In this document: positions 1 to 64,000 of the stretch, piece after piece
How the letters are laid out: every line of letters begins with the position of its first letter
How positions within the stretch are numbered: the first letter of the stretch is position 1
Source of the DNA: Plumapathes pennacea
Taxonomy: Eukaryota; Cnidaria; Anthozoa; Antipatharia; Myriopathidae
Length of the DNA stretch: 64,000 bases
Assembly: GCA_964036295.1 (NCBI GenBank)
Contig: OZ038470.1
Span: forward strand, 9,391,078-9,455,077
Direction of reading: 5' to 3'
Translations under genes and position numbers: made by a program
The notes under the pieces: generated by a model
Told to the model about the DNA's origin: nothing
Databases searched by the model: none
What the model saw: only the letters and a program-made list of their open reading frames with translations

Positions 1-595
1 AGACGCATTAGCAAGTTTTATCTCAAATCTTAGGTTTGACTTCAGCCCACTTTGATAATAAACCCCATGATCGTCTAACAGCGGGTGAGATAGTGGAATA
101 CAATACCTCTGAGCGTAGGATAAATTCGTGAGTTTCATAATCTTAGAATCGCCAGTTTCTGCCGCTCTAATCTTTCTTTTGTCTTCTTGTCATGATTCCT
201 CTTTTCATATCTTCCTCACACGTCAACATATCATGATACCCATGAAAAATGTCATATTTGTCTGTGTCACAAATAGTTTTTCCTCCAAAGAAAATTTTCA
301 TGTGGTTCACTAAGTTTCTTGATACGTTTTGAACGAGGTGGTTGCTTGCAACACCCTTTTCTATCTTGACGTTAAACCTCAAAAACATACTCTTTGGAAC
401 GAAAACCATGTTTCATACAACCTCGGGTACATTAACATAAAGTGTTTTTCCAGGCTTAGCAGACGATGGTGTGAAAGTTGTCCTATGAACTGTCCTCTCT
501 GCCTTCATTGCCTTCGACAATCTTGGCCTTCTATTCGGATTAAGTATTTTCTGCAAACGACATATTATTTTAAAAACATCAAAACAAATCTTTAA
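1..595. repeat. 3' end of an E-type monomer
   Basis: Only the MCP 5' half of the monomer is in the window. It matches E1 and E2 at diagnostic sites, such as the CAATACC near 80 where A-D monomers read CGATACC. The HOR preceding A1 is therefore also of the A-E kind. Confidence 0.9.
1..595 (-). pseudogene. MCP: MCP 5' half, E-type copy (cut by window edge)
   Basis: The 5' part of the capsid pseudogene described at 11650-12917. It carries the shared in-frame TGA just upstream of 409 and the shared frameshift between the reading frames ending at 167 and starting at 138. The rest lies left of the window. Confidence 0.85.
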
Positions 596-1617
596 ATGAA
601 AAACATGGAAAAGATTTATTACTCTTCTAGAAAGGATATTGGAAGGGTTTATCCGCAGTCAAGAAACTTTCTACAGAAGCTAAAGTTAGCCTAGAAGAAG
701 CAAGAGATTGGCTATCAAAACAGGCGCTTTGGCAAATTTATCTTCCTCCACCGAATTATGTTCCAATACCACATTGGATTATTTCAGAACCAAACGAAAT
801 TCACCAAGCAGATCTCCTATTCCTCCCCCACGATAAAGTCGGAAGAAAAACTTATATATATATATATGCTTTAGTCGTTATTGATATTGCTTCAAGATAT
901 GTCGATGTAGAAGCTTTGACAAGTAAATCAAGTGATGAAGTGTCAAACGCTTTCAAGAAAATTTACTCAAGAAAGTAAAAATGGCCAAAAACTTGTTGAT
1001 CCGGGAAGAGAGTTTGTTGGATCTGTAACGGTTCTTATGAATGAAAAAAAGCTAGTTATCAAAGATCGAAAACTGCTAATCACAGAGCACAAGCATTCGT
1101 CGAGAGAGCGAACAAAACATTGGGAGAAAAAATATTTAGTCAACAATATGCTGACGAAATGTTAACTGAAGGTAGATCAACAAAGTGGATAAATAGATTA
1201 CCAAATATCGTGAAAACTATCAACAACCACGTCACTCGACTGACTGGCAAAAAAGCCATCGACGCTTATCGTGAGAAAATTGTTGAACAACAGACTAAGA
1301 ATTATTCAAGACCTGTTGGGTTTAATGAAAAAAGGCTTGACTCAATCGAAAAAGTAAGATATCTTGTCTTGCCAGGAGAGGAAGAAGGAGGAAACCTAAG
1401 AAGGGCAACAGATCCCATATGGAGTACAAACGTTTTTGAGTTGAAAAAATCCATAATATCTAAAAATCAACCAGTTTTGTATTATTTAGTCGATGGACCA
1501 AAAAGAGGATTCGCCAGAGAAGAGTTACTAATCATACCATATGGCACAGAATTACCTCCAAAAATTTTTCTTAAAACAATAACTTTTCTAAATATCTTTA
1601 ATCCTATAATGCCTTAA
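596..1617 (+). pseudogene. INT: Polinton integrase (rve/DDE), A1 copy
   Basis: In intact Polintons this protein joins the linear element to host DNA in the nucleus. The N-terminal part retains an alpha-helical segment (EEARDWLSKQALWQIYLPPP) followed by the first catalytic aspartate in HQADLLFLPHD. The second aspartate is in VDPGREF near 1003, and the glutamate is in AFVERANK near 1102. The two are about 35 codons apart, as expected for D,D(35)E integrases. The C-terminal part (TRLTGKKA, YSRPVGF, DGPKRGFAREELL, ELPP) is the conserved tail of Polinton integrases and the longest open stretch. The gene is broken by frameshifts after YPQS (near 650), after IYSRK (976) and near 1045, all shared with other monomers; A, C and D also lack 5 bp before VDPG. 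An extra base near 1563 replaces the native FVLKQ end with a longer tail overlapping PolB. Confidence 0.93.
853..867. repeat. TA microsatellite inside integrase
   Basis: A run of alternating T and A encodes Tyr-Ile repeats in the INT core. It is interrupted by a C in B-type monomers (near 4961) and is shorter in C (near 9027), so it is a slippage-prone marker of monomer type. Confidence 0.8.
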
Positions 1618-2362
1618 GGCTAAGGTGTCTATCCCATTTGGTAATATGTTTCTTTTATCGTCTTCCCTACTAAGTGCTATTTTGTTCACTTCTTCCGTGT
1701 ATATGTCATGATCGCGACTTCTAATTAGATTCATCACCCTCATTTTCTTACCGCCGTTGATACGACAATCTTCATAATCCTGAAAATTTATATCCTTATT
1801 AACAAGAAGGTTATTGGAATGTTTAAGGATGAAGTCGGTGGAAGACACGTTTGAAGAATCGAGTACGTAAGAGTCAAGCTTAGCTCTCAAACTGACAAAC
1901 TCTGAAATTTGTCTTCCACCGACTTCATCCTTAAACATTCCAATAACCTTCTTGTTAACTCCAGTAGTAATTCCTGAAGGATGATCCTTTGGGTAATTAC
2001 TAGTGTCAAACGATGTTAAGACATCCCCACTAATACCTTTATAAAAATCATCCGTCTCTATCTCATATATTAATGAATAAGTGTCAGTAAATAGTAACCT
2101 TGCCTTATCATTGTACTTCTCTTTGATGTAACCATAATGAAAATCATACATCAACGTTTTACTTATGTCAAGTATTGACATTCCCAAGTAAACTGGTTTA
2201 TCAAATAATAGCTTCGTCCTATGCATGTGAATAGCTGCTAAATCATTCACAAAATATTTTCCTTCTATCAAAGCTTGGTTTTGAGATAAGTTTCCTAGCT
2301 TGTGACTCGTTAGTGACCAACTTAATGTCTACCCTATTTCGGATATTTTCCATGGTTTTTCC
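1588..2362 (-). pseudogene. POLB: Family B DNA polymerase C-terminal fragment, A1 copy
   Basis: See 9759-10532 for the full description. A-type monomers add a frameshift in the KIF region (GTGAATGATT near 2250, where C has one A fewer), a 6-bp loss beside it, and the inverted duplication 1799-1958 that replaces the KKCKGVKKAVV segment. A continuous frame of 227 codons (1588-2271) results, but its middle encodes the antisense of an upstream PolB segment. The motif C codon at 2077-2079 is TAT. Confidence 0.92.
1799..1958. repeat. 49-bp-arm inverted repeat in PolB (A1)
   Basis: Arms 1799-1847 and 1910-1958 are perfect reverse complements with a 62-bp spacer. The right arm is the native PolB segment encoding NKKVIGMFKDEVGGRQ; the left arm is its inverted copy, which replaces native sequence still present in C monomers. 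It could form a cruciform, or a hairpin in RNA. Confidence 0.95.
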
Positions 2363-2820: not shown

Positions 2821-2840
2821 TTATTTGTCATAACAAAATT

Positions 2841-5682: not shown

Positions 5683-5687
5683 CTTTT

Positions 5688-13939: not shown

Positions 13940-14684
13940 GGCTAAGGTGTCTATCCCATTTGGTAATATGTTTCTTTTATCGTCTTCCCTACTAAGTGCT
14001 ATTTTGTTCACTTCTTCCGTGTATATGTCATGATCGCGACTTCTAATTAGATTCATCACCCTCATTTTCTTACCGCCGTTGATACGACAATCTTCATAAT
14101 CCTGAAAATTTATATCCTTATTAACAAGAAGGTTATTGGAATGTTTAAGGATGAAGTCGGTGGAAGACACGTTTGAAGAATCGAGTACGTAAGAGTCAAG
14201 CTTAGCTCTCAAACTGACAAACTCTGAAATTTGTCTTCCACCGACTTCATCCTTAAACATTCCAATAACCTTCTTGTTAACTCCAGTAGTAATTCCTGAA
14301 GGATGATCCTTTGGGTAATTACTAGTGTCAAACGATGTTAAGACATCTCCACTAACACCTTTATAAAAATCATCCGTCTCTATCTCATATATTAATGAAT
14401 AAGTGTCAGTAAATAGTAACCTTGCCTTATCATTGTACTTCTCTTTGATGTAACCATAATGAAAATCATACATCAACGTTTTACTTATGTCAAGTATTGA
14501 CATTCCCAAGTAAACTGGTTTATCAAATAATAGCTTCGTCCTATGCATGTGAATAGCTGCTAAATCATTCACAAAATATTTTCCTTCTATCAAAGCTTGG
14601 TATTGAGATAAGTTTCCTAGCTTGTGACTCGTTAGTGACCAACTTAATGTCTACCCTATTTCGGATATTTTCCATGGTTTTTCC
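13910..14684 (-). pseudogene. POLB: PolB C-terminal fragment, D1 copy
   Basis: Form with the inverted duplication; 13910-14593 is one frame. It shares ACATCTCCACTAACACC with B, against A. A private T-to-A change near 14602 (CTTGGTATTGAG) is also in D2 but not D3. Confidence 0.92.
14121..14280. repeat. Inverted repeat in PolB (D1)
   Basis: Perfect arms 14121-14169 and 14232-14280. Confidence 0.94.
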
Positions 14685-15142
14685 TCAGACACTTTTGATG
14701 CATACCTGCAAATTCTTCTTCCTAATTGTTTATTATTCAACAAATCTTTCTTCAAAGACTCTTCATCGTCCAAAGTAAGGATATCCGAAAGTCCTTTAAA
14801 AATTCCATCAACAACTATTCCCATTCCATCTTTCATTAACTCTTGTCCGGACTTTTCTTCATAAACTTTGAATAAACATTCTAAATCAGAATCCTTCATC
14901 TTTCTAATATCAACTGCACTTATGTTTTCTCCTACATATTCTTCCAAACCAAGCGTCATGGCAACTGACGCAAGAATATCTCTTTTTCTCGATATTTCAC
15001 TTTGTACCTCTGGATCTATTTCAGCTTCCTTTTGTGATTCTTTCTTCTTACTTTGTGTTAGTTTTCTTTTTGCTTTAGGTTTTTGTTCTTTTTTTGTTTC
15101 GTTCTTTTCAAGATTAACGTAATCGTTTACAGTTTCTGCCAT
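14651..15142 (-). pseudogene. Charged unknown protein, D1 copy
   Basis: 163 codons open. The N-terminus reads EKNETKKEQ, and SDILTL replaces SYILTL (change near 14786, shared with D2 only). Confidence 0.6.
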
Positions 15143-15162
15143 TTATTTGTCATAACAAAATT

Positions 15163-15800
15163 TTAAGTTGTTTGTGGAATTTCAATATGATATGAAAATG
15201 GATGGCGAAGAGAAAAACAAATCCTTGAGTGTTTTTCATTTTTTAGTATTTCACAAATAGTTTTCTTTTCATTATTATCAATTCCAGAACCAAACTTTTT
15301 AAAAAGTAAATCTGTTCCATCAAATTCTGGATTATAAAATGCAATAATGCAACCAAGATTTTCTCTGAATGGTTTCGCAATGCTAGTCAATTGTTGAGTT
15401 AGAACCCAAACAGAAATTCCAATATGTCGTCCACTGAAGCGAGATCGATGAGTTTGCTGCTTCGTTTCTTCACATCTGCACTCACTGCACAATCATCAAG
15501 AATTATGAGAACTTTGGTTTGTCTTTGTAAATCATCCATTTTGATGTCGTGAAATAGATCTGCACAAATCTCCAAACACTCTTCAACATCTTCAGATTCA
15601 CTCGCATTTGGCATCGTGACGAAAAAGCATTTGTCAAGATTAGCGAACCCTTCATAAGTTTTGTTAGTGGCGAACGTTGGACAAATCAAACAAAAAAGTC
15701 GAAAACATACTTGGTCGATCTCTCAAAAGATCGACCAAGTATTGTGTTTTCCCACAATTTGTTGGGCCAGTAATCAAGCAAAATCGTATATTTTTAAATC
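15163..15800 (-). pseudogene. ATP: Packaging ATPase, D1 copy
   Basis: Walker A present, hairpin present, 1-bp deletion near 15438. DIKMDD is shared with B. Confidence 0.88.
15707..15742. repeat. Hairpin next to Walker A (D1)
   Basis: Arms 15707-15721 and 15728-15742, perfect. Confidence 0.94.
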
Positions 15801-17056
15801 TTATGAAGATGGCTGAATCCTTACATCTTTCACAACTCCATCACTAACGAAGACTGCTGCATCTGAAACAACAAACACGTGACAATCGACGGTCGTAGAA
15901 GCAATTCCAGCCACGTCTACAACTAATCTCACACCATCCTGAGATCTTCCAACCACAATTCCGTCTCCATGAAGATTGTTATCTGGTGTGGATCTCAAAT
16001 CAATCCACAATGCGAACTTGCCATTATGAAAGTCAATTTCCTTAAAGTGATCCTCGACATAATCAAACCTTTTCAAAATCATTGGCCAAACATTCCGTCT
16101 GAAAATAACTTGTGTGGAACACCATTTATAGAAACCTTTACCGAATTAACAAGAGGATTAATATACTGCTCAGCTTTTCTTTCTCCTGAATCGAAACTCT
16201 TTAAAAAGAATAACATGATTCCCTTTCATACAACTTCTTGGTGTGTGTACGTGCAAATTAAAAACAGCCCCCGTACCAATATCCTTCGAGACTAACGTTT
16301 CAAAATGATGCACATCCTCAAAGTAAAAAAGTTCTCCCACTTTGATAAACGCTACTCGCTTGAATTGCTAAATTTTCATCTTCAATGGTTGCGTATTCCA
16401 ATTCTATGTGTGTTAACTCATATCCATGGCCTTTGGTATTGTCTGAAGTTACAACTATATCAGACGCATTAGCAAGTTTTATCTCAAATCTTAGGTTTGA
16501 CTTCAGCCCACTTTGATAATAAACCCCATGATCGTCTAACAGCGGGTGAGATAGTGGAATACGATACCTCTGAGCGTAGGATAAATTCGTGAGTTTCATA
16601 ATCTTAGAATCGCCAGTTTCTGCCGCTCTAATCTTTCTTTTGTCTTCTTGTCATGATTCCTCTTTTCATATCTTCCTCACACGTCAACATATCATGATAC
16701 CCATGAAAAATGTCATATTTGTCTGTGTCACAAATAGTTTTTCCTCCAAAGAAATTTTTGATGTGATTCACTAAGTTTCTTGATACGTTTTGAACGAGGT
16801 GGTTGCTTGCAACACCCTTTTCTATCTTGACGTTAAACCTCAAAAACATACTCTTTGGAACGAAAACCATGTTTCATACAACCTCGGGTACATTAACATA
16901 AAGTGTTTTTCCAGGCTTAGCAGACGATGGTGTGAAAGTCGTCCTATGAACTGTCCTCTCTGCCTTCATTGCCTTCGACAATCTTGGCCTTCTATTCGGA
17001 TTAAGTATTTTCTGCAAACGACATATTATTTTAAAAACATCAAAACAAATCTTTAA
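15801..17056 (-). pseudogene. MCP: Major capsid protein, D1 copy
   Basis: Split like A1. A private variant near 16755 (AATTTTTGATG) changes NHMKIF to NHIKNF in the second piece. Confidence 0.87.
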
Positions 17057-23424: not shown

Positions 23425-23444
23425 TTATTTGTCATAACAAAATT

Positions 23445-26286: not shown

Positions 26287-26291
26287 CTTTT

Positions 26292-27522: not shown

Positions 27523-27542
27523 TTATTTGTCATAACAAAATT

Positions 27543-30357: not shown

Positions 30358-30362
30358 CTTTT

Positions 30363-31594: not shown

Positions 31595-31614
31595 TTATTT
31601 GTCATAACAAAATT

Positions 31615-35746: not shown

Positions 35747-35766
35747 TTATTTGTCATAACAAAATT

Positions 35767-39889: not shown

Positions 39890-39909
39890 TTATTTGTCAT
39901 AACAAAATT

Positions 39910-44028: not shown

Positions 44029-44048
44029 TTATTTGTCATAACAAAATT

Positions 44049-48127: not shown

Positions 48128-48147
48128 TTATTTGTCATAACAAAATT

Positions 48148-48785
48148 TTAAGTTGTTTGTGGAATTTCAATATGATATGAAAATGGATGGCGAAGAGAAA
48201 AACAAATCCTTGAGTGTTTTTCAATTTTTAGTATTTCACAAATAGTTTTCTTTTCATTATTATCAATTCCAGAACCAAACTTTTTAAAAAGTAAATCTGT
48301 TCCATCAAATTCTGGATTATAAAATGCAATAATGCAACCAAGATTTTCTCTGAATGGTTTCGCAATGCTAGTCAATTGTTGAGTTAGAACCCAAACAGAA
48401 ATTCCAATATGTCGTCCACTGAAGCGAGATCGATGAGTTTGCTGCTTCGTTTCTTCACATCTGCACTCACTGCACAATCATCAAGAATTATGAGAACTTT
48501 GGTTTGTCTTTGTAAATCATCCATTTTGATGTCGTGAAATAGATCTGCACAAATCTCCAAACACTCTTCAACATCTTCAGATTCACTCGCATTTGGCATC
48601 GTGACGAAAAAGCATTTGTCAAGATTAGCGAACCCTTCATAAGTTTTGTTAGTGGCGAACGTTGGACAAATCAAACAAAAAAGTCGAAAACATACTTGGT
48701 CGATCTCTCAAAAGATCGACCAAGTATTGTGTTTTCCCACAATTTGTTGGGCCAGTAATCAAGCAAAATCGTATATTTTTAAATC
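48148..48785 (-). pseudogene. ATP: Packaging ATPase, B3 copy
   Basis: Same as B1. Confidence 0.88.
48692..48727. repeat. Hairpin next to Walker A (B3)
   Basis: Arms 48692-48706 and 48713-48727. Confidence 0.94.
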
Positions 48786-50029
48786 TTATGAAGATGGCTG
48801 AATCCTTACATCTTTCACAACTCCATCACTAACGAAGACTGCTGCATCTGAAACAACAAACACGTGACAATCGACGGTCGTAAAAGCAATTCCAGCCACG
48901 TCTACAACTAATCTCACACCATCCTGAGATCTTCCAACCACAATTCCGTCTCCATGAAGATTGTTATCTGGTGTGGATCTCAAATCAATCCACAATGCGA
49001 ACTTGCCATTATGAAAGTCAATTTCCTTAAAGTGATCCTCGACATAATCAAACCTTTTCAAAATCATTGGCCAAACATTCCGTCTGAAAATAACTTGTGT
49101 GGAACACCATTTATAGAAACCTTTACCGAATTAACAAGAGGATTAATAAACTCCTCAGCTTTTCTTTCTCCTGAATCGAAACTCTTTAAAAAGAATAACA
49201 TGATTCCCTTTCATACAACTTCTTGGTGTGTTTACGTGCAAATTAAAAACAGCCCCCGTACCAATATCCTTCCAGGCTAACGTTTCAAAATGATGCACAT
49301 CCTCAAAGTAAAAAAGTTCTCCCACTTTGATAAACGCTACTCGCTTGAATTGCTAAATTTTCATCTTCAATGGTTGCGTATTCCAATTCTATGTGTGTTA
49401 ACTCATATCCATGGCCTTTGGTATTGTCTGAAGTTACAACTATATCAGACGCATTAGCAAGTTTTATCTCAAATCTTAGGTTTGACTTCAGCCCACTTTG
49501 ATAATAAACCCCATGATCGTCTAACAGCGGGTGAGATAGTGGAATACGATACCTCTGATTCGTGAGTTTCATAATCTTAGAATCGCCAGTTTCTGCCGCT
49601 CTAATCTTTCTTTTGTCTTCTTGTCATGATTCCTCTTTTCATATCTTCCTCACACGTCAACATATCATGATACCCATGAAAAATGTCATATTTGTCTGTG
49701 TCACAAATAGTTTTTCCTCCAAAGAAAATTTTCATGTGGTTCACTAAGTTTCTTGATACGTTTTGAACGAGGTGGTTGCTTGCAACACCCTTTTCTATCT
49801 TGACGTTAAACCTCAAAAACATACTCTTTGGAACGAAAACCATGTTTCATACAACCTCGGGTACATTAACATAAAGTGTTTTTCCAGGCTTAGCAGACGA
49901 TGGTGTGAAAGTCGTCCTATGAACTGTCCTCTCTGCCTTCATTACCTTCGACAATCTTGGCCTTCTATTCGGATTAAGTATTTTCTGCAAACGACATATT
50001 ATTTTAAAAACATCAAAACAAATCTTTAA
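48786..50029 (-). pseudogene. MCP: Major capsid protein, B3 copy, 12-bp deletion
   Basis: As B1 except for an in-frame 12-bp loss near 49557 (MKLTNQRYRIP, four residues shorter than other copies). Confidence 0.87.
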
Positions 50030-50950
50030 ATGAAAAACATGGAAAAGATTTATCACTCTTCTCAAAAGGATATTGGAAGGGTTTATCCGCAGTCAAGAAA
50101 CTTTCTACAGAAGCTAAAGTTAGCCTAGAAGAAGCAAGAGATTGGCTATCAAAACAGGCGCTTTGGCAAATTTATCTTCCTCCACCGAATTATGTTCCAA
50201 GACCACACATCGGAAGAAAAACTTATATATATATATGCTTTAGTCGTTATTGATATTGCTTCAAGATATGTCGATGTAGAAGCTTTGACAAGTAAATCAA
50301 GTGATGAAGTGTCAAACCCTTTCAAGAAAATTTACTCAAGAAAGTAAAAATGGCCAAAAACTTGTTGATCCGGGAAGAGAGTTTGTTGGATCTGTAACGG
50401 TTCTTATGAATGAAAAAAAGCTAGTTATCAAAGATCGGAAACTGCTAATCACAGAGCACAAGCATTCGTCGAGAGAGCGAACAAAACATTGGGAGAAAAA
50501 ATATTTAGTCAACAATATGCTGACGAAATGTTAACTGAAGGTAGATCAACAAAGTGGATAAATAGATTACCAAATATCGTGAAAACTATCAACAACCACG
50601 TCACTCGACTGACTGACAAAAAAGCCATCGACGCTTATCGTGAGAAAAATGTTGAACAAAAGACTAAGAATCATTCAAGACCTGTTGGGTTTAATGAAAA
50701 AAGGCTTGACTCAATCGAAAAAGTAAGATATCTTGTCTTGCCAGGAGAGGAAGAAGGAGGAAACCTAAGAAGGGCAACAGATCCCATATGGAGTACAAAC
50801 GTTTTTGAGTTGAAAAAATCCATAATATCTAAAAATCAACCAGTTTTGTATTATTTAGTCGATGGACCAAAAAGAGGATTCGCCAGAGAAGAATTACTAA
50901 TCATACCATATGACACAGAATTACCTCCAAAATTTGTCTTAAAACAATAA
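50030..50950 (+). pseudogene. INT: Polinton integrase, C3 copy, core deleted
   Basis: As C1, with one substitution near 50316. Confidence 0.92.
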
Positions 50951-50955
50951 CTTTT

Positions 50956-51730
50956 CTAAATATCTTTAATCCTATAATGCCTTAAGGCTAAGGTGTCTAC
51001 CCGATTTGGTAATATGTTTCTTTCATCGTCTTCCCTACTAAGTGCTATTTTGTTCACTTCTTCCGTGTATATGTCATGATCGCGACTTCTAATTAGATTC
51101 ATCACCCTCATTTTCTTACCGCCGTTGATACGACAATCTTCATAATCCTGAAAATTTATATCCTTATTAACGACAGCCTTCTTAACGCCCTTACACTTCT
51201 TTTCCTCCTTCGTTTGAAGAATCGAGTACGTAAGAGTAAAGCTTAGCTCCCAAGCTGACAAACTCTGAAATTTGTCTTCCACCGACTTCATCCTTAAACA
51301 TTCCAATAACCTTCTTGTTAACTCCAGTAGTAATTCCTGAAGGATGATCCTTTGGGTAATTACTAGTGTCAAACGATGTTAAGACATCCCCACTAATACC
51401 TTTATAAGAATCATCCCTCTCTATCTCATACATTAATGAATAAGTGTCAGTAAATAGTAACCTTCCCTTATCATTGTACTTCTCTTTGATGTAACCATAA
51501 TGAAAATCATACATCAACGTTTTACTTATGTCAAGTATTGACATTCCCAAGTAAACTGGTTTATCAAATAATAGCTTCGTTCTATGCATGTGAATAGCTG
51601 CTAAATCATCACAAAATATTTTCCTTCTATCAATATCAAAGCTTGGTTTTGAGATAAGTTTCCTAGCTTGTGAGTCGTTAGCGACCAACTTAATGTCTAC
51701 CCTATTTCGGATATTTTCCATGGTTTTTCC
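50956..51730 (-). pseudogene. POLB: PolB C-terminal fragment, C3 copy
   Basis: One base more than C1 and C2 near 51170 makes KKCKGVKKAVV continuous with the C-terminal NKDINFQDY part (frame 50956-51372). The frameshift after DSSN and the DTYS motif remain, so it is still dead. A substitution near 51464 gives KGRLLF for KARLLF. Confidence 0.93.
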
Positions 51731-52188
51731 TCAGAAACTTTTGATGCATACCTGCAAATTCTTCTTCCTAATTGTTTATTATTCAACAAATCTTTCTTCA
51801 AAGACTCTTCATCGTCCAAAGTAAGGATATACGAAAGTCCTTTAAAAATTCCATCAACAACTATTCCCATTCCATCTTTCATTAACTCTTGTCCGGACTT
51901 TTCTTCATAAACTTTGAATAAACATTCTAAATCAGAATCCTTCATCTTTCTAATATCAACTGCACTTATGTTTTCTCCTACATATTCTTCCAAACCAAGC
52001 GTCATGGCAACTGACGCAAGAATATCTCTTTTTCTCGATATTTCACTTTGTACCTCTGGATCTATTTCAGCTTCCTTTTGTGATTCTTTCTTCTTACTTT
52101 GTGTTAGTTTTCTTTTTGCTTTAGGTTTTTGTTCTTCTCTTGTTTCGTTCTCTTCAAGATTAACGTAATCGTTTACAGTTTCTGCCAT
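51697..52188 (-). pseudogene. Charged unknown protein, C3 copy
   Basis: Same as C1. Confidence 0.6.
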
Positions 52189-52208
52189 TTATTTGTCATA
52201 ACAAAATT

Positions 52209-52847
52209 TTAAGTTGTTTGTGGAATTTCAATATGATATGAAAATGGATGGCGAAGAGAAAAACAAATCCTTGAGTGTTTTTCATTTTTTAGTATTTCAC
52301 AAATAGTTTTCTTTTCATTATTATCAATTCCAGAACCAAACTTTTTAAAAAGTAAATCTGTTCCATCAAATTCTGGATTATAAAATGCAATAATGCAACC
52401 AAGATTTTCTCTGAATGGTTTCGCAATGCTAGTCAATTGTTGAGTTAGAACCCAAACAGAAATTCCAATATGTCGTCCACTGAAAGCGAGATCGATGAGT
52501 TTGCTGCTTCGTTTCTTCACATCTGCACTCACTGCACAATCATCAAGAATTATGAGAACTTTGGTTTGTCTTTGTAAATCATCCATTTTGGTGTCGTGAA
52601 ATAGATCTGCACAAATCTCCAAACACTCTTCAACATCTTCAGATTCACTCGCATTTGGCATCGTGACGAAAAAGCATTTGTCAAGATTAGCGAACCCTTC
52701 ATAAGTTTTGTTAGTGGCGAACGTTGGACAAATCAAACAATAAAGTCGAAAACATACTTGGTCGATCTCTCAAAAGATCGACCAAGTATTGTGTTTTCCC
52801 ACAATTTGTTGGGCCAGTAATCAAGCAAAATCGTATATTTTTAAATC
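52209..52847 (-). pseudogene. ATP: Packaging ATPase, C3 copy
   Basis: Continuous core frame 52209-52736, as in C1. Confidence 0.9.
52754..52789. repeat. Hairpin next to Walker A (C3)
   Basis: Arms 52754-52768 and 52775-52789. Confidence 0.94.
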
Positions 52848-54115
52848 TTATGAAGATGGCTGAATCCTTACATCTTTCACAACTCCATCACTAACGAAGA
52901 TTGCTGCACCTGAAACAACAAACACGTGACAATCGACGGTCGTAGAAGCAATTCCAGCCACGTCTACAACTAATCTCACACCATCCTGAGATCTTCCAAC
53001 CACAATTCCGTCTCCATGAAGATTGTTAACTGGTGTGGATCTCAAATCAATCCACAATGCGAACTTGCCATTATGAAAGTCAATTTCCTTAAAGTGATCC
53101 TCGACATAATCAAACCTTTTCAAAATCATTGGCCAAACATCCTCTCGTAAAATTTCGTCTGAAAATAACTTGTGTGGAACACCATTTATAGAAACCTTTA
53201 CCGAATTAACAAGAGGATTAATATACTGCTCAGCTTTTCTTTCTCCTGAATGGAAACTCTTTATAAAGAATAACATGATTCCTTTCATACAACTTCTTGG
53301 TGTGTTTACGTGCAAATTAAAAACAGCCCCCGTACCAATATCCTTCGAGGCTAACGTTTCAAAATGATGCACATCCTCAAAGTAAAAAAGTTCTCCCACT
53401 TTGATAAACGCTACTCGCTTGAATTGCTAAATTTTCATCTTCAATGGTTGCGTATTCCAATTCTATGTGTGTTAACTCATATCCATGGCCTTTGGTATTG
53501 TCTGAAGTTACAACTATATCAGACGCATTAGCAAGTTTTATCTCAAATCTTAGGTTTGACTTCAGCCCACTTTGATAATAAACCCCATGATCGTCTAACA
53601 GCGGGTGAGATAGTGGAATACGATACCTCTGAGCGTAGGATAAATTAGTGAGTTTCATAATCTTAGAATCGCCAGTTTCTGCCGCTCTAATCTTTCTTTT
53701 GTCTTCTTGTCATGATTCCTCTTTTCATATCTTCCTCACACGTCAACATATCATGATACCCATGAAAAATGTCATATTTGTCTGTGTCACAAATAGTTTT
53801 TCCTCCAAAGAAAATCTTCATGTGGTTCACTAAGTTTCTTGATACGTTTTGAACGAGGTGGTTGCTTGCAACACCCTTTTCTATCTTGACGTTAAACCTC
53901 AAAAACATACTCTTTGGAACGAAAACCATGTTTCATACAACATGGGGTACATTAACATAAAGTGTTTTTCCAGGCTAAGCAGACGATGGTGTGAAAGTCG
54001 TCCTATGAACTGTCCTCTCTGCCTTCATTACCTTCGACAATCTTGGCCTTCTATTCGGATTAAGTATTTTCTGCAAACGACATATTATTTTAAAAACATC
54101 AAAACAAATCTTTAA
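52848..54115 (-). pseudogene. MCP: Major capsid protein, C3 copy
   Basis: Long C-terminal piece 52848-53399. Substitutions near 53275 and 53997 make it locally more like the other monomer types. Confidence 0.89.
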
Positions 54116-55137
54116 ATGAAAAACATGGAAAAGATTTATTACTCTTCTCAAAAGGATATTGGAAGGGTTTATCCGCAGTCAAGAAACTTTCTACAGAAGC
54201 TAAAGTTAGCCTAGAAGAAGCAAGAGATTGGCTATCAAAACAGGCGCTTTGGCAAATTTATCTTCCTCCACCGAATTATGTTCCAAGACCACATTGGATT
54301 ATTTCAGAACCAAACGAAATTCACCAAGCAGATCTCCTATTCCTCCCCCACGATAAAGTCGGAAGAAAAACTTATATATATATATATGCTTTAGTCGTTA
54401 TTGATATTGCTTCAAGATATGTCGATGTAGAAGCTTTGACAAGTAAATCAAGTGATGAAGTGTCAAACGCTTTCAAGAAAATTTACTCAAGAAAGTAAAA
54501 ATGGCCAAAAACTTGTTGATCCGGGAAGAGAGTTTGTTGGATCTGTAACGGTTCTTATGAATGAAAAGAAGCTAGTTATCAAAGATCGAAAACTGCTAAT
54601 CACAGAGCACAAGCATTCGTCGAGAGAGCGAACAAAACATTGGGACAAAAAATATTTAGTCAAAAATATGCTGACGAAATGTTAACTGAAGGTAGATCAA
54701 CAAAGTGGATAAATAGATTACCAAATATCGTGAAAACTATCAACAACCACGTCACTCGACTGACTGGCAAAAAAGCCATCGACGCTTATCGTGAGAAAAA
54801 TGTTGAACAAAAGACTAAGAATTATTCAAGACCTGTTGGGTTTAATGAAAAAAGGCTTGACTCAATCGAAAAAGTAAGATATCTTGTCTTGCCAGGAGAG
54901 GAAGAAGGAGGAAACGTAAGAAGGGCAACAGATCCCATATGGAGTACAAACGTTTTTGAGTTGAAAAAATCTATAATATCTAAAAATCAACCAGTTTTGT
55001 ATTATTTAGTCGATGGACCAAAAAGAGGATTCGCCAGAGAAGAATTACTAATCATACCATATGGCACAGAATTACCTCCAAAAATTTTTCTTAAAACAAT
55101 AACTTTTCTAAATATCTTTAATCCTATAATGCCTTAA
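54116..55137 (+). pseudogene. INT: Polinton integrase, D3 copy
   Basis: Same as D1. Confidence 0.92.
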
Positions 55138-55882
55138 GGCTAAGGTGTCTATCCCATTTGGTAATATGTTTCTTTTATCGTCTTCCCTACTAAGTGCTAT
55201 TTTGTTCACTTCTTCCGTGTATATGTCATGATCGCGACTTCTAATTAGATTCATCACCCTCATTTTCTTACCGCCGTTGATACGACAATCTTCATAATCC
55301 TGAAAATTTATATCCTTATTAACAAGAAGGTTATTGGAATGTTTAAGGATGAAGTCGGTGGAAGACACGTTTGAAGAATCGAGTACGTAAGAGTCAAGCT
55401 TAGCTCTCAAACTGACAAACTCTGAAATTTGTCTTCCACCGACTTCATCCTTAAACATTCCAATAACCTTCTTGTTAACTCCAGTAGTAATTCCTGAAGG
55501 ATGATCCTTTGGGTAATTACTAGTGTCAAACGATGTTAAGACATCTCCACTAACACCTTTATAAAAATCATCCGTCTCTATCTCATATATTAATGAATAA
55601 GTGTCAGTAAATAGTAACCTTGCCTTATCATTGTACTTCTCTTTGATGTAACCATAATGAAAATCATACATCAACGTTTTACTTATGTCAAGTATTGACA
55701 TTCCCAAGTAAACTGGTTTATCAAATAATAGCTTCGTCCTATGCATGTGAATAGCTGCTAAATCATTCACAAAATATTTTCCTTCTATCAAAGCTTGGTT
55801 TTGAGATAAGTTTCCTAGCTTGTGACTCGTTAGTGACCAACTTAATGTCTACCCTATTTAGGATATTTTCCATGGTTTTTCC
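55108..55882 (-). pseudogene. POLB: PolB C-terminal fragment, D3 copy
   Basis: D-type, but without the change at the KPSF lysine found in D1 and D2 (55796). A substitution at 55858 lies in the overlap with the unknown gene. Confidence 0.92.
55319..55478. repeat. Inverted repeat in PolB (D3)
   Basis: Perfect arms 55319-55367 and 55430-55478. Confidence 0.94.
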
Positions 55883-56340
55883 TCAGACACTTTTGATGCA
55901 TACCTGCAAATTCTTCTTCCTAATTGTTTATTATTCAACAAATCTTTCTTCAAAGACTCTTCATCGTCCAAAGTAAGGATATACGAAAGTCCTTTAAAAA
56001 TTCCATCAACAACTATTCCCATTCCATCTTTCATTAACTCTTGTCCGGACTTTTCTTCATAAACTTTGAATAAACATTCTAAATCAGAATCCTTCATCTT
56101 TCTAATATCAACTGCACTTATGTTTTCTCCTACATATTCTTCCAAACCAAGCGTCATGGCAACTGACGCAAGAATATCTCTTTTTCTCGATATTTCACTT
56201 TGTACCTCTGGATCTATTTCAGCTTCCTTTTGTGATTCTTTCTTCTTACTTTGTGTTAGTTTTCTTTTTGCTTTAGGTTTTTGTTCTTTTTTTGTTTCGT
56301 TCTTTTCAAGATTAACGTAATCGTTTACAGTTTCTGCCAT
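55849..56340 (-). pseudogene. Charged unknown protein, D3 copy, stops 3 codons early
   Basis: The change at 55858 makes a stop after KPWKIS, giving 160 codons. SYILTL is kept here, unlike D1 and D2. Confidence 0.62.
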
Positions 56341-56360
56341 TTATTTGTCATAACAAAATT

Positions 56361-56998
56361 TTAAGTTGTTTGTGGAATTTCAATATGATATGAAAATGGA
56401 TGGCGAAGAGAAAAACAAATCCTTGAGTGTTTTTCATTTTTTAGTATTTCACAAATAGTTTTCTTTTCATTATTATCAATTCCAGAACCAAACTTTTTAA
56501 AAAGTAAATCTGTTCCATCAAATTCTGGATTATAAAATGCAATAATGCAACCAAGATTTTCTCTGAATGGTTTCGCAATGCTAGTCAATTGTTGAGTTAG
56601 AACCCAAACAGAAATTCCAATATGTCGTCCACTGAAGCGAGATCGATGAGTTTGCTGCTTCGTTTCTTCACATCTGCACTCACTGCACAATCATCAAGAA
56701 TTATGAGAACTTTGGTTTGTCTTTGTAAATCATCCATTTTGATGTCGTGAAATAGATCTGCACAAATCTCCAAACACTCTTCAACATCTTCAGATTCACT
56801 CGCATTTGGCATCGTGACGAAAAAGCATTTGTCAAGGTTAGCGAACCCTTCATAAGTTTTGTTAGTGGCGAACGTTGGACAAATCAAACAAAAAAGTCGA
56901 AAACATACTTGGTCGATCTCTCAAAAGATCGACCAAGTATTGTGTTTTCCCACAATTTGTTGGGCCAGTAATCAAGCAAAATCGTATATTTTTAAATC
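56361..56998 (-). pseudogene. ATP: Packaging ATPase, D3 copy
   Basis: As D1, with a silent substitution near 56836. Confidence 0.88.
56905..56940. repeat. Hairpin next to Walker A (D3)
   Basis: Arms 56905-56919 and 56926-56940. Confidence 0.94.
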
Positions 56999-58254
56999 TT
57001 ATGAAGATGGCTGAATCCTTACATCTTTCACAACTCCATCACTAACGAAGACTGCTGCATCTGAAACAACAAACACGTGACAATCGACGGTCGTAGAAGC
57101 AATTCCAGCCACGTCTACAACTAATCTCACACCATCCTGAGATCTTCCAACCACAATTCCGTCTCCATGAAGATTGTTATCTGGTGTGGATCTCAAATCA
57201 ATCCACAATGCGAACTTGCCATTATGAAAGTCAATTTCCTTAAAGTGATCCTCGACATAATCAAACCTTTTCAAAATCATTGGCCAAACATTCCGTCTGA
57301 AAATAACTTGTGTGGAACACCATTTATAGAAACCTTTACCGAATTAACAAGAGGATTAATATACTGCTCAGCTTTTCTTTCTCCTGAATCGAAACTCTTT
57401 AAAAAGAATAACATGATTCCCTTTCATACAACTTCTTGGTGTGTGTACGTGCAAATTAAAAACAGCCCCCGTACCAATATCCTTCGAGACTAACGTTTCA
57501 AAATGATGCACATCCTCAAAGTAAAAAAGTTCTCCCACTTTGATAAACGCTACTCGCTTGAATTGCTAAATTTTCATCTTCAATGGTTGCGTATTCCAAT
57601 TCTATGTGTGTTAACTCATATCCATGGCCTTTGGTATTGTCTGAAGTTACAACTATATCAGACGCATTAGCAAGTTTTATCTCAAATCTTAGGTTTGACT
57701 TCAGCCCACTTTGATAATAAACCCCATGATCGTCTAACAGCGGGTGAGATAGTGGAATACGATACCTCTGAGCGTAGGATAAATTCGTGAGTTTCATAAT
57801 CTTAGAATCGCCAGTTTCTGCCGCTCTAATCTTTCTTTTGTCTTCTTGTCATGATTCCTCTTTTCATATCTTCCTCACACGTCAACATATCATGATACCC
57901 ATGAAAAATGTCATATTTGTCTGTGTCACAAATAGTTTTTCCTCCAAAGAAATTTTTGATGTGATTCACTAAGTTTCTTGATACGTTTTGAACGAGGTGG
58001 TTGCTTGCAACACCCTTTTCTATCTTGACGTTAAACCTCAAAAACATACTCTTTGGAACGAAAACCATGTTTCATACAACCTCGGGTACATTAACATAAA
58101 GTGTTTTTCCAGGCTTAGCAGACGATGGTGTGAAAGTCGTCCTATGAACTGTCCTCTCTGCCTTCATTGCCTTCGACAATCTTGGCCTTCTATTCGGATT
58201 AAGTATTTTCTGCAAACGACATATTATTTTAAAAACATCAAAACAAATCTTTAA
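56999..58254 (-). pseudogene. MCP: Major capsid protein, D3 copy
   Basis: Same as D1. Confidence 0.87.
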
Positions 58255-59280
58255 ATGAAAAACATGGAAAAGATTTATTACTCTTCTCAAAAGGATATTG
58301 GAAGGGTTTATCCGCAGTCAAGAAACTTTCTACAGAAGCTAAAGTTAGCCTAGAAGAAGCAAGAGATTGGCTATCAAAACAGGCGCTTTGGCAAATTTAT
58401 CTTCCTCCACCGAATTATGTTCCAAGACCACATTGGATTATTTCAGAACCAAACGAAATTCACCAAGCAGATCTCCTATTCCGCCCCCACGATAAAGTCG
58501 GAAGAAAAACTTATATATATATATATGCTTTAGTCGTTATTGATATTGCTTCAAGATATATCGATGTAGAAGCTTTGACAAGTAAATCAAGTGATGAAGT
58601 GTCAAACGCTTTCAAGAAAATTTACTCAAGAAAGTAAAAATGGCAAAAACTTTGATTGTTGATCCGGGAAGAGAGTTTGTTGGATCTGTAACGGTTCTTA
58701 TGAATGAAAAAAAGCTAGTTATCAAAGATCGGAAACTGCTAATCACAGAGCACAAGCATTCGTCGAGAGAGCGAACAAAACATTAGGAGAAAAAATATTT
58801 AGTCAACAATATGCTGACGAAATGTTAACTGAAGGTAGATCAACAAAGTGGATAAATAGATTACCAAATATCGTGAAAACTATCGACAACCACGTCACTC
58901 GACTGACTGGCAAAAAAGCCATCGACCCTTATCGTGAGAAAAATGTTGAACAAAAGACTAAGAATTATTCAAGACCTGTTGGGTTTAATGAAAAAAGGCT
59001 TGACTCAATCGAAAAAGTAAGATATCTTGTCTTGCCAGGAGAGGAAGAAGGAGGAAACCTAAGAAGGGCAACAGATCCCATATGGAGTACAAACGTTTTT
59101 GAGTTGAAAAAATCCATAATATCTAAAAATCAACCAGTTTTGTATTATTTAGTCGATGGACCAAAAAGAGGATTCGCCAGAGAAGAATTACTAATCATAC
59201 CATATGGCACAGAATTACCTCCAAAAATTTTTCTTAAAACAATAACTTTTCTAAATATCTTTAATCCTATAATGCCTTAA
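58255..59280 (+). pseudogene. INT: Polinton integrase, E3 copy
   Basis: Same as E1. Confidence 0.92.
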
Positions 59281-60025
59281 GGCTAAGGTGTCTATCCCAT
59301 TTGGTAATATGTTTCTTTTATCGTCTTCCCTACTAAGTGCTATTTTGTTCACTTCTTCCGTGTATATGTCATGATCGCGACTTCTAATTAGATTCATCAC
59401 CCTCATTTTCTTACCGCCGTTGATACGACAATCTTCATAATCCTGAAAATTTATACCCTTATTAACAAGAAGGTTATTGGAATGTTTAAGGATGAAGTCG
59501 GTGGAAGACACGTTTGAAGAATCGAGTACGTAAGAGTCAAGCTTAGCTCTCAAACTGACAAACTATGAAACTTGTCTTCCACCGACTTCATCCTTAAACA
59601 TTCCAATAACCTTCTTGTTAACTCCAGTAGTAATTCCTGAAGGATGATCCTTTGGGTAATTACTAGTGTCAAACGATGTTAAGACATCCCCACTAACACC
59701 TTTATAAAAATCATCCGTCTCTATCTCATATATTAATGAATAAGTGTCAGTAAATAGTAACCTTGCCTTATCATTGTACTTCTCTTTGATGTAACCATAA
59801 TGAAAATCATACATCAACGTTTTACTTATGTCAAGTATTGACATTCCCAAGTAAACTGGTTTATCAAATAATAGCTTCGTCCTATGCATGTGAATAGCTG
59901 CTAAATCATTCACAAAATATTTTCCTTCTATCAAAGCTTGGTTTTGAGATAAGTTTCCTAGCTTGTGACTCGTTAGTGACCAACTTAATGTCTACCCTAT
60001 TTCGGATATTTTCCATGGTTTTTCC
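59251..60025 (-). pseudogene. POLB: PolB C-terminal fragment, E3 copy, extra nonsense codon
   Basis: Same nonsense codon as E1, near 59565. Confidence 0.92.
59462..59621. repeat. Inverted repeat in PolB (E3)
   Basis: Arms 59462-59510 and 59573-59621. Confidence 0.92.
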
Positions 60026-60483
60026 TCAGACACTTTTGATGCATACCTGCAAATTCTTCTTCCTAATTGTTTATTATTCAACAAATCTTTCTTCAAAGAC
60101 TCTTCATCGTCCAAAGTAAGGATATACGAAAGTCCTTTAAAAATTCCATCAACAACTATTCCCATTCCATCTTTCATTAACTCTTGTCCGGACTTTTCTT
60201 CATAAACTTTGAATAAACATTCTAAATCAGAATCCTTCATCTTTCTAATATCAACTGCACTTATGTTTTCTCCTACATATTCTTTCAAACCAAGCGTCAT
60301 GGCAACTGACGCAAGAATATCTCTTTTTCTCGATATTTCACTTTGTACCTCTGGATCTATTTCAGCTTCCTTTTGTGATTCTTTCTTCTTACTTTGTGTT
60401 AGTTTTCTTTTTGCTTTAGGTTTTTGTTCTGTTTTTGTTTCGTTCTCTTCAAGATAAACGTAATCGTTTACAGTTTCTGCCAT
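59992..60483 (-). pseudogene. Charged unknown protein, E3 copy
   Basis: N-terminus DYVYLEENETKTEQ, differing from E1 at two residues; 163 codons open. Confidence 0.6.
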
Positions 60484-60503
60484 TTATTTGTCATAACAAA
60501 ATT

Positions 60504-61141
60504 TTAAGTTGTTTGTGGAATTTCAATATGATATGAAAATGGATGGCGAAGAGAAAAACAAATCCTTGAGTGTTTTTCATTTTTTAGTATTTCACAAATA
60601 GTTTTCTTTTCATTATTATCAATTCCAGAACCAAACTTTTTAAAAAGTAAATCTGTTCCATCAAATTCTGGATTATAAAATGCAATAATGCAACCAAGAT
60701 TTTCTCTGAATGGTTTCGCAATGCTAGTCAATTGTTGAGTTAGAACCCAAACAGAAATTCCAATATGTCGTCCACTGAAGCGAGATCGATGAGTTTGCTG
60801 CTTCGTTTCTTCACATCTGCACTCACTGCACAATCATCAAGAATTATGAGAACTTTGGTTTGTCTTTGTAAATCATCCATTTTGGTGTCGTGAAATAGAT
60901 CTGCACAAATCTCCAAACACTCTTCAACATCTTCAGATTCACTCGCATTTGGCATCGTGACGAAAAAGCATTTGTCAAGATTAGCGAACCCTTCATAAGT
61001 TTTGTTAGTGGCGAACGTTGGACAAATCAAACAAAAATGTCGAAAACATACTTGGTCGATCTCTCAAAAGATCGACCAAGTATTGTGTTTTCCCACAATT
61101 TGTTGGGCCAGTAATCAAGCAAAATCGTATATTTTTAAATC
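60504..61141 (-). pseudogene. ATP: Packaging ATPase, E3 copy
   Basis: As E1 but with LQRQTKV, the common form. Confidence 0.88.
61048..61083. repeat. Hairpin next to Walker A (E3)
   Basis: Arms 61048-61062 and 61069-61083. Confidence 0.94.
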
Positions 61142-62397
61142 TTATGAAGATGGCTGAATCCTTACATCTTTCACAACTCCATCACTAACGAAGACTGCTG
61201 CATCTGAAACAACAAACACGTGACAATCGACGGTCGTAGAAGATATTCCTGCCACGTCTACAACTAATCTCACACCATCCTGAGATCTTCCAACCACAAT
61301 TCCGTCTCCATGAAAATTGTTATCTGGTGTGGATCTCAAATCAATCCACAATGCGAACTTGCCATTATGAAAGTCAATTTCCTTAAAGTGATCCTCGACA
61401 TAATCAAACCTTTTCAAAATCATTGGCCAAACATTCCGTCTGAAAATAACTTGTGTGGAACACCATTTATAGAAACCTTTACCGAATTAACAAGAGGATT
61501 AATAAACTCCTCAGCTTTTCTTTCTCCTGAATCGAAACTCTTTAAAAAGAATAACATGATTCCCTTTCATACAACTTCTTGGTGTGTTTACGTGCAAATT
61601 AAAAACAGCCCCTGTACCAATATCCTTCGAGGCTAACGTTTCAAAATGATGCACATCCTCAAAGTAAAAAAGTTCTCCCACTTTGATAAACGCTACTCGC
61701 TTGAATTGCTAAATTTTCATCTTCAATGGTTGCGTATTCCAATTCTATGTGTGTTAACTCATATCCATGGCCTTTGGTATTGTCTGAAGTTACAACTATA
61801 TCAGACGCATTAGCAAGTTTTATCTCAAATCTTAGGTTTGACTTCAGCCCACTTTGATAATAAACCCCATGATCGTCTAACAGCGGGTGAGATAGTGGAA
61901 TACAATACCTCTGAGCGTAGGATAAATTCGTGAGTTTCATAATCTTAGAATCGCCAGTTTCTGCCGCTCTAATCTTTCTTTTGTCTTCTTGTCATGATTC
62001 CTCTTTTCATATCTTCCTCACACGTCAACATATCATGATACCCATGAAAAATGTCATATTTGTCTGTGTCACAAATAGTTTTTCCTCCAAAGAAAATTTT
62101 CATGTGGTTCACTAAGTTTCTTGATACGTTTTGAACGAGGTGGTTGCTTGCAACACCCTTTTCTATCTTGACGTTAAACCTCAAAAACATACTCTTTGGA
62201 ACGAAAACCATGTTTCATACAACCTCGGGTACATTAACATAAAGTGTTTTTCCAGGCTTAGCAGACGATGGTGTGAAAGTTGTCCTATGAACTGTCCTCT
62301 CTGCCTTCATTGCCTTCGACAATCTTGGCCTTCTATTCGGATTAAGTATTTTCTGCAAACGACATATTATTTTAAAAACATCAAAACAAATCTTTAA
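61142..62397 (-). pseudogene. MCP: Major capsid protein, E3 copy
   Basis: As E1, with one substitution near 61613. Confidence 0.87.
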
Positions 62398-63418
62398 ATG
62401 AAAAACATGGAAAAGATTTATTACTCTTCTAGAAAGGATATTGGAAGGGTTTATCCGCAGTCAAGAAACTTTCTACAGAAGCTAAAGTTAGCCTAGAAGA
62501 AGCAAGAGATTGGCTATCAAAACAGGCGCTTTAGCAAATTTATCTTCCTCCACCGAATTATGTTCCAATACCACATTGGATTATTTCAGAACCAAACGAA
62601 ATTCACCAAGCAGATCTCCTATTCCTCCCCCACGATAAAGTCGGAAGAAAAACTTATATATATATATATGCTTTAGTCGTTATTGATATTGCTTCAAGAT
62701 ATGTCGATGTAGAAGCTTTGACAAGTAAATCAAGTGATGAAGTGTCAAACGCTTTCAAGAAAATTTACTCAAGAAAGTAAAAATGGCCAAAAACTTGTTG
62801 ATCCGGGAAGAGAGTTTGTTGGATCTGTAACGGTTCTTATGAATGAAAAAAAGCTAGTTATCAAAGATCGAAAACTGCTAATCACAGAGCACAAGCATTC
62901 GTCGAGAGAGCGAACAAAACATTGGGAGAAAAAATATTTAGTCAACATATGCTGACGAAATGTTAACTGAAGGTAGATCAACAAAGTGGATAAATAGATT
63001 ACCAAATATCGTGAAAACTATCAACAACCACGTCACTCGACTGACTGGCAAAAAAGCCATCGACGCTTATCGTGAGAAAATTGTTGAACAAAAGACTAAG
63101 AATTATTCAAGACCTGTTGGGTTTAATGAAAAAAGGCTTGACTCAATCGAAAAAGTAAGATATCTTGTCTTGCCAGGAGAGGAAGAAGGAGGAAACCTAA
63201 GAAGGGCAACAGATCCCATATGGAGTACAAACGTTTTTGAGTTGAAAAAATCCATAATATCTAAAAATCAACCAGTTTTGTATTATTTAGTCGATGGACC
63301 AAAAAGAGGATTCGCCAGAGAAGAATTACTAATCATACCATATGGCACAGAATTACCTCCAAAAATTTTTCTTAAAACAATAACTTTTCTAAATATCTTT
63401 AATCCTATAATGCCTTAA
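62398..63418 (+). pseudogene. INT: Polinton integrase, A4 copy, further damaged
   Basis: A-like, with two new lesions: TGG to TAG near 62533 in the N-terminal helix, and a 1-bp deletion near 62946 after IFSQ. Beyond 63085 it matches other monomer types (ACAAAAGAC, GAAGAATTAC) rather than A1-A3. Confidence 0.92.
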
Positions 63419-64000
63419 GGCTAAGGTGTCTATCCCATTTGGTAATATGTTTCTTTTATCGTCTTCCCTACTAAGTGCTATTTTGTTCACTTCTTCCGTG
63501 TATATGTCATGATCGCGACTTCTAATTAGATTCATCACCCTCATTTTCTTACCGCCGTTGATACGACAATCTTCATAATCCTGAAAATTTATATCCTTAT
63601 TAACAAGAAGGTTATTGGAATGTTTAAGGATGAAGTCGGTGGAAGACACGTTTGAAGAATCGAGTACGTAAGAGTCAAGCTTAGCTCTCAAACTGACAAA
63701 CTCTGAAATTTGTCTTCCACCGACTTCATCCTTAAACATTCCAATAACCTTCTTGTTAACTCCAGTAGTAATTCCTGAAGGATGATCCTTTGGGTAATTA
63801 CTAGTGTCAAACGATGTTAAGACATCCCCACTAACACCTTTATAAAAATCATCCGTCTCTATCTCATATATTAATGAATAAGTGTCAGTAAATAGTAACC
63901 TTGCCTTATCATTGTACTTCTCTTTGATGTAACCATAATGAAAATCATACATCAACGTTTTACTTATGTCAAGTATTGACATTCCCAAGTAAACTGGTTT
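63389..64000 (-). pseudogene. POLB: PolB C-terminal fragment, A4 copy (cut by window edge)
   Basis: It has the inverted duplication and the DTYS motif, and reads GVSGDV, where A1-A3 read GISGDV. Its 5' part lies right of the window. Confidence 0.9.
63600..63759. repeat. Inverted repeat in PolB (A4)
   Basis: Perfect arms 63600-63648 and 63711-63759. Confidence 0.94.

What the first reader, a model, noticed from the sequence alone, without database searches (positions are those of the whole stretch)
1..64000. A Polinton/adintovirus fragment turned into a macrosatellite
All 64 kb consist of a 4.1-kb internally deleted Polinton segment repeated head to tail. Polintons are known as dispersed 15-20-kb elements with terminal inverted repeats; long tandem arrays of a deleted core are not something I know to be described. 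The array may be a chromosomal satellite, or a multimeric extrachromosomal form.
Basis: partly seen in the sequence, partly recalled or inferred. Interest (0 to 1): 0.9.

Follow-up and report, generated by a model that had tools for sequence, protein, structure and literature searches.

The report
Viral-transposon fragment turned chromosomal macrosatellite
A middle piece of a virus-like jumping gene (a Polinton) has been copied head to tail about 98 times in the middle of one chromosome of an animal, and two other chromosomes carry similar clusters made from other Polintons, so this genome seems to have turned virus-like elements into satellite DNA more than once.

Summary
The window is a head-to-tail array of a ~4.1-kb Polinton segment, part of one array of about 98 units, C9:9,085,419-9,488,310 of a 290-Mb animal genome, with repeat-rich chromosomal sequence on both sides. 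The window is an ordered 5-unit higher-order repeat of 20.6 kb (3 differences in 20,604 bases between two blocks). The unit is an internal segment (end of a late gene, ATPase, capsid-like gene, integrase, PolB C-terminus) without terminal repeats. An older 6.2-kb unit survives at the left edge; the 4.1-kb unit arose by a ~2.1-kb deletion with 4 bp of microhomology. That junction was found 93 times in the array and nowhere else. A template-switch allele forming a 49-bp-arm hairpin was found 73 times, again only there. Markers recombine between units. It reads as a chromosomal satellite evolving in concert; an extrachromosomal multimer is not needed. Two further clusters, from other Polinton lineages, lie on C3 and C5. 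Small Polinton-related satellites are in print; my searches listed no multi-gene one. Centromere function is untested.

The parts
1..64000 (+). part of a ~403-kb head-to-tail array (C9:9,085,419-9,488,310) of a ~4.1-kb Polinton segment
686..21289 (+). higher-order repeat, first full 5-unit block in the window (20,604 bp)
   Evidence: 3 mismatches of 20,604 against the next block; spacing; lag-5 divergence
21290..41893 (+). higher-order repeat, second block (20,604 bp)
41894..62487 (+). higher-order repeat, third block (20,594 bp)
14681..18823 (+). one representative unit, from junction J2 to the next J2
14681..14684 (+). junction J2 (PolB joined to the late-gene region, TTCC microhomology); 15 such junctions in the window, the others starting at 2359, 6459, 10529, 18824, 22963, 27063, 31133, 35285, 39428, 43567, 47668, 51727, 55879 and 60022
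   Evidence: 14 of 15 read TTCC, one reads TTAC
14651..15142 (-). C-terminal part of an uncharacterised late gene (X), open 163 aa; its end runs across J2
   Evidence: collinear with the dispersed copy L032:1759-2232
15163..15722 (-). packaging-ATPase remnant, frame broken; the window pieces themselves had no Pfam match
   Evidence: the dispersed copy's ATPase matches Pox_A32 at 1.2e-15
15801..17119 (-). capsid-like gene in broken pieces (extent inferred)
   Evidence: Capsid_N E 0.013 on one piece, below Pfam cut-off; collinear with L032
17035..18082 (+). rve-type integrase, frame broken in this unit
   Evidence: rve E 2.8e-4, below cut-off; a dispersed 327-aa copy finds 3,037 homologues, the 120 listed bearing PF00665
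13910..14684 (-). C-terminal part of protein-primed DNA polymerase B, cut at J2
   Evidence: the window piece had no Pfam match; homologous to the 638-aa left-edge frame, for which 7,995 homologues were scored
14121..14280 (.). derived allele D: 49-bp inverted repeat with a 62-base spacer, from a templated inverted insertion; 13 of the 16 sites in the window carry it

Best explanation
A chromosomal macrosatellite born from one Polinton insertion. Read from the structures: (1) a tandem duplication of an internal segment made a 6.2-kb unit (junction J1); (2) a ~2.1-kb deletion across J1, with 4 bp of microhomology, made the 4.1-kb unit (J2); (3) units with J2 came to number 93 of about 98; (4) a template-switch mutation in one unit made allele D, now in 73 units; (5) blocks of several units were copied, the closest copies being the 20.6-kb five-unit blocks of the window. 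The order of these steps is inferred from what the edges keep. Inferred too is the enzymology: J1 and J2 by microhomology-mediated repair or replication restart; expansion and homogenisation by unequal exchange and gene conversion between units. Most coding frames are broken, and the array is most likely non-coding satellite DNA in TE-rich, perhaps pericentromeric, chromatin.
For: Anchor 40-mer: 98 forward matches (the 97 that I took from the list all lie in the array) and 3 reverse ones on C1, C9 and C10, in 290 Mb. J2: 93 forward, all in the array, 0 reverse. D: 73 forward, all in the array, 0 reverse. The left edge keeps the 6.2-kb unit and J1; the right edge runs 1.2 kb on into PolB. Unit collinear with dispersed copies on C9, C10 and C1, pieces 76-92% identical. 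Nearest PolB outside the array among the scored candidates: 87% aa. Repeated multi-unit runs: 10 units 86.7 kb apart, 9 units 136 kb apart, 9 units 20.6 kb apart. Marker association with D falls from mean r2 0.37 at 100-300 bases to 0.06 at 600-1000; 2,214 of 8,778 marker pairs show all four combinations (41 of about 98 units). In the right part, lag-5 divergence is 0.47% against 1.05-1.43% at lags 1-4. Integrase reads in one frame in 12 of 48 places, ATPase in 5 of 46.
Against: I read letters for only 45 complete units; the middle (9,180,001-9,391,077) is known mainly through pattern places. Twelve of 48 places still hold an integrase in one frame, so selection on it is not excluded. r2 rises again slightly (0.12) at 1,500-2,100 bases. 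J1's microhomology cannot be read exactly, because the PolB relative used there is ~79% identical. No reads: unit number and block order depend on the assembly.
Confidence: 0.82

Rival explanations
1. The array arose by excision of a Polinton segment as a circle, rolling-circle amplification, and re-insertion as a multimer, as proposed for Bari1 in Drosophila.
For: Head-to-tail order; a published precedent with an 80-repeat cluster; a proposed circular or stem-loop intermediate for Mavericks.
Against: A one-step multimer predicts like units and flanks unrelated to the unit (inference). Instead the edges hold longer units and PolB sequence that continues beyond the unit, and units differ by up to 2.6%. 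A circle could still have made the first 6.2-kb tandem.
Confidence: 0.12
2. Assembly artefact: true copies are fewer or dispersed and the assembler chained them.
For: Blocks of 20.6 kb differ by only 3 bases, which reads might not resolve. No reads were available.
Against: Both edges lie in other sequence on one chromosome, with longer, more diverged units at the left edge, no N in the stretches read, and J2 and D found only in the array. Only 3 anchor copies were found elsewhere.
Confidence: 0.05
3. Repeated insertion of Polintons into one another or into one hot spot.
For: The genome is rich in Polintons, and a partial second copy stands beside the C1 copy.
Against: Units lack terminal inverted repeats (unit self-comparison finds only the 160-bp hairpin), and the array shares one orientation and one private junction.
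Confidence: 0.01

Closest known systems
LmiSat34-299 of the migratory locust (PMC4935994, passage seen)
   Same: satellite DNA with homology to Polinton coding sequence
   Different: 299-bp unit by its name; no parent, junction or higher-order structure in the passage seen
CgiSat52 of the Pacific oyster (PMC8268682, table row seen)
   Same: satellite annotated DNA/Polinton
   Different: 1,656 in the table's length column; no multi-gene unit mentioned in the row seen
Bari1 tandem cluster of Drosophila melanogaster (review PMC9659126, section 8 read)
   Same: DNA transposon turned into an 80-repeat heterochromatic cluster
   Different: a Tc1-mariner element with rolling circle and reinsertion proposed; here an internal Polinton segment with stepwise junctions
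Human macrosatellites such as D4Z4 and DXZ4 (recalled)
   Same: kb-sized units in one long array
   Different: not derived from a virus-like DNA transposon (recalled)
Maverick remnants next to bracovirus locus 7 in Glyptapanteles (PMC2646287, passages seen)
   Same: Maverick gene block without terminal repeats
   Different: a single block beside a proviral locus in the passages seen, not a satellite

Membership tests
Polinton/Maverick (as origin of the unit) | rve integrase | tested here: met
   Below Pfam cut-off, but the 120 listed of 3,037 homologues bear PF00665
Polinton/Maverick (as origin of the unit) | protein-primed DNA polymerase B | tested here: met
   7,995 homologues scored for the left-edge frame, among the 120 listed Nematostella, Nymphon, Actinostola and Amphiura proteins; one of the 120 bears PF03175. 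The query itself had no Pfam, PHROG or PDB match; polymerase motifs recognised by eye (recalled)
Polinton/Maverick (as origin of the unit) | FtsK/A32-type packaging ATPase | tested here: met
   Pox_A32 1.2e-15 in the dispersed copy; that protein finds 46 array places
Polinton/Maverick (as origin of the unit) | double jelly-roll major capsid protein | tested here: inconclusive
   Capsid_N E 0.013, below cut-off; longer edge frames had no match; no structure predicted
Polinton/Maverick (the unit as an element) | terminal inverted repeats with 6-bp target duplication | tested here: not met
   Unit self-comparison shows only the internal hairpin. The unit derives from a Polinton but is not one
Polinton/Maverick (the unit as an element) | element of 15-20 kb | tested here: not met
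   4.1-kb unit
Adintovirus | virus particles or free genomes | not testable with these tools
   No reads or virions
Macrosatellite | kb-sized units, tens of copies, head to tail, one locus | tested here: met
   About 98 units, one orientation, one locus
Satellite with higher-order repeats | multi-unit blocks more alike than neighbouring units | tested here: met
   Right part, lag 5: 0.47% against 1.05-1.43% at lags 1-4; 3 of 20,604. In the left part no such lag-5 drop (1.36%)
Centromeric satellite | CENH3 binding at the primary constriction | not testable with these tools
   Only position and TE density available

The most novel reading that the evidence does not exclude
Virus-like Polintons are this genome's recurrent source of (peri)centromeric macrosatellites: at least three chromosomes have independently turned internal Polinton segments into tandem clusters inside each chromosome's Polinton-dense zone. 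On C9 a hairpin-forming allele made by a template switch may have helped the winning unit expand.
Probability: 0.22. Interest if true: 0.82.

Novelty: new variant of a known kind. Interest (0 to 1): 0.6.

Why it matters
TE-derived satellites are known, but a locus that keeps so many steps of their birth should be rare (my judgement). Here dispersed relatives, an early tandem unit, the deletion that made the winning unit, a later marker mutation and recent higher-order blocks can be read in one genome. It also adds a virus-like DNA element of several genes to the sources of macrosatellites; a review's Table 1 of recorded TE-to-satellite cases shows no Polinton or Maverick row. If the C3, C5 and C9 arrays mark centromeres, the question whether viral elements seed centromeric satellites becomes testable in one species.

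Tried and rejected
Extrachromosomal multimer: rejected on the edges. Terminal repeats inside the unit: none found. Candidate terminal repeats of the C10 copy (126 bp, 96%, ends 12.4 kb apart): no matching target duplication seen by eye, left open. PolB against Pfam, PHROGs and PDB: no match; homologue search used instead. Host name: a search on assembly size and chromosome number found no fit; the 120 listed COX1 homologues carried no species name. Gene-density control with kinase genes: 2 of 67 thinned places fall in the Polinton-dense zones against 5.0 expected, too few to conclude. Array placement near other Polintons: C3 P 0.024, C5 P 0.074, C9 P 0.127, suggestive at best. Passages in PMC12368964, PMC12859917, PMC4992247, PMC12694884, PMC9026859, PMC13130569, PMC10586311 and PMC12220107 gave no Polinton tandem array.
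Full report
WHAT IS THERE. The window is G000:C9:9,391,078-9,455,077 of a 290,015,204-base genome in 24 contigs. C1-C12 each exceed 14 Mb and sum to 289.3 Mb, and C13 has 0.1 Mb, so n = 12 is likely. C24 (17.7 kb, presumably mitochondrial) holds an interrupted COX1 whose two main pieces lie 854 bases apart. Its COX1 reads sensibly with AGA as arginine, which points to a non-bilaterian animal; the residue pattern looks anthozoan (both recalled). Of nine contig starts read, two show a TTAGG/TTAGGG-type mixture and three read N. No species could be named.

THE ARRAY. One unit tiles the window and the array runs from C9:9,085,419 to 9,488,310. A conserved 40-mer has 98 forward and 3 reverse matches with up to 3 mismatches. 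I took 97 forward places from that list and all lie in the array; the list was cut, and a double-length interval at 9,189,436-9,197,712 with two J2 junctions in it marks the place of one more unit. The three reverse matches are dispersed Polinton copies on C1, C9 and C10, in pieces 76-92% identical to the unit; the C1 copy has a second partial copy beside it.

THE UNIT. In array orientation it reads: end of late gene X (-), ATPase (-), capsid-like gene (-), integrase (+), C-terminal PolB (-) (names and from collinearity). The same order is found in the dispersed copy at C9:8.78-8.79 Mb, whose PolB belongs to another lineage; the C10 copy has the integrase and a related PolB side by side. The unit shows no terminal repeats.

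HOW THE UNIT AROSE. At the left edge the first anchor-to-anchor unit is 6.2 kb long. Behind the integrase it keeps a 638-aa PolB frame and then joins, at ~9,089,580 (J1), to sequence that lies behind gene X in the dispersed copies. The 4.1-kb unit lacks ~2.1 kb across J1; its junction J2 keeps one copy of TTCC, present on both parental sides. J2 was found 93 times, all in the array. The five units left over fit the first, the last (which runs 1.2 kb on into PolB, 96.8% identical to the left-edge stretch), two 3.1-kb units and one 3.7-kb unit (inferred from lengths and BLAST pieces).

A MARKER MUTATION. In 73 units (none found elsewhere) about 40 bases of PolB are replaced by an inverted copy of a stretch about 60 bases downstream, giving a 49-bp-arm hairpin; among the 45 units read the first keeps the older form. 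In the window 13 of 16 sites carry it; ten have perfect arms and three have one mismatch. This is the mark of a template switch during replication or repair (inference).

HOW IT EVOLVES. Pairwise divergence of 41 ordinary units is 1.38% on average, 2.6% at most. In the right part units five apart differ by 0.47% on average, those one to four apart by 1.05-1.43%; in the left part there is no such drop at five (1.36%). Two 20,604-bp blocks in the window differ at 3 sites. Whole-array spacing plus the D/A code shows copied runs of up to 10 units. The association of markers with D fades within about 600 bases: mean r2 0.37 at 100-300, 0.17 at 300-600, 0.06 at 600-1000, then 0.07 and 0.12; the 0-100 value (0.78) is inflated because the inserted stretch itself counts there. 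Of 8,778 marker pairs 2,214 show all four combinations. Units therefore exchange sequence as well as being copied in blocks.

CODING. Integrase spans at least 90% in one reading frame in 12 of 48 array places and ATPase in 5 of 46 (tblastn stretches may contain stops). The array behaves as decaying sequence, but selection on some integrase copies was not tested.

OTHER ARRAYS. A PolB N-terminal query gave 123 matches, on all 12 large contigs (lower bound, 111 of 441 candidates scored). On C5, 14.79-14.97 Mb, 17 matches of a PolB 40-mer stand in one orientation; the one 10-kb stretch read holds a 7.0-kb tandem, pieces 97.4-98.5% identical, that also includes other TE sequence. On C3, 8.17-8.31 Mb, the same 40-mer (2-3 mismatches) recurs 21 times in one orientation, 8 of 20 intervals being 3,882-3,890 bases. 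The C5 series is less regular (5 of 16 intervals 6,964-7,330).

PLACE IN THE CHROMOSOME. Polinton places gather in one zone per chromosome: 74 of 100 thinned places fall in the best 15% stretch, against 40.9 (sd 2.6, maximum 52 of 2,000 draws) for random places; with most array places removed, 65 of 91 against 38.0 (sd 2.6). The three arrays lie in such zones, at 29% (C3), 56% (C5) and 53% (C9) of their chromosomes. Kinase genes are not clearly depleted there: 2 of 67 against 5.0 expected. That the zones are pericentromeres is a guess.

WHAT IS KNOWN. Seen in papers: a locust satellite (LmiSat34-299) with homology to Polinton coding sequence (PMC4935994, passage); an oyster satellite labelled DNA/Polinton, length 1,656 (PMC8268682, table row); a remark on Polintons beside Triatoma satellites (PMC5983683, passage); a Polinton-like cluster with ChIP/input ratio 2.12 in a CENH3 table of Tribolium (PMC7598501, table row); a review whose Table 1 of TE-to-satellite cases has no Polinton row (PMC9659126, outline and sections 7, 8 and 14). 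Searches for Polinton, Maverick or adintovirus with satellite, tandem, tandem array, macrosatellite or centromere terms listed no multi-gene Polinton macrosatellite by title or abstract; two listings were cut (25 of 48, 15 of 40), only listings and the named passages were read, and most subscription papers are not held.

VERDICT. Real in this assembly, chromosomal, and a new variant of a known kind: TE-derived satellite DNA, at macrosatellite scale, from a virus-like element, with birth steps preserved and with two sister clusters in the same genome.

Noticed in passing
G000:C5:14,790,000-14,970,000 (L035): Second Polinton-derived tandem cluster; in the 10 kb read a 7.0-kb unit that includes other TE sequence, pieces 97.4-98.5% identical.
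   Followed up: partly
G000:C3:8,167,746-8,305,771: Third cluster: a PolB 40-mer recurs 21 times in one orientation, often 3,887 bases apart.
   Followed up: partly
L025:4872-7606 and L033 (C10:9,358,716-9,361,645): The right flank of the array resembles sequence beside the C10 Polinton copy (two longest pieces 90-93% identical); one ORF looks Helitron-like (recalled).
   Followed up: no
L033/L034, C10:9,361,775 and 9,374,149: 126-bp inverted repeats, 96% identical, ends 12.4 kb apart: candidate ends of a dispersed Polinton, without an evident target duplication.
   Followed up: partly
L029/L030, C1:13,298,957-13,303,387 and 13,306,146-13,310,209: A 2.0-kb inverted repeat, 99% identical, with a ~0.4-kb spacer, near a directly repeated Polinton segment (83% identical copies).
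   Followed up: no
G000:C3:14.04-15.95 Mb: 29 of the kinase matches lie here, 27 on the + strand, tens of kb apart, mostly in frames of ~274 aa: a large tandem gene family or another amplified element.
   Followed up: no
G000:C24:4629-6872: COX1 is interrupted by about 850 bases, suggesting an intron.
   Followed up: partly
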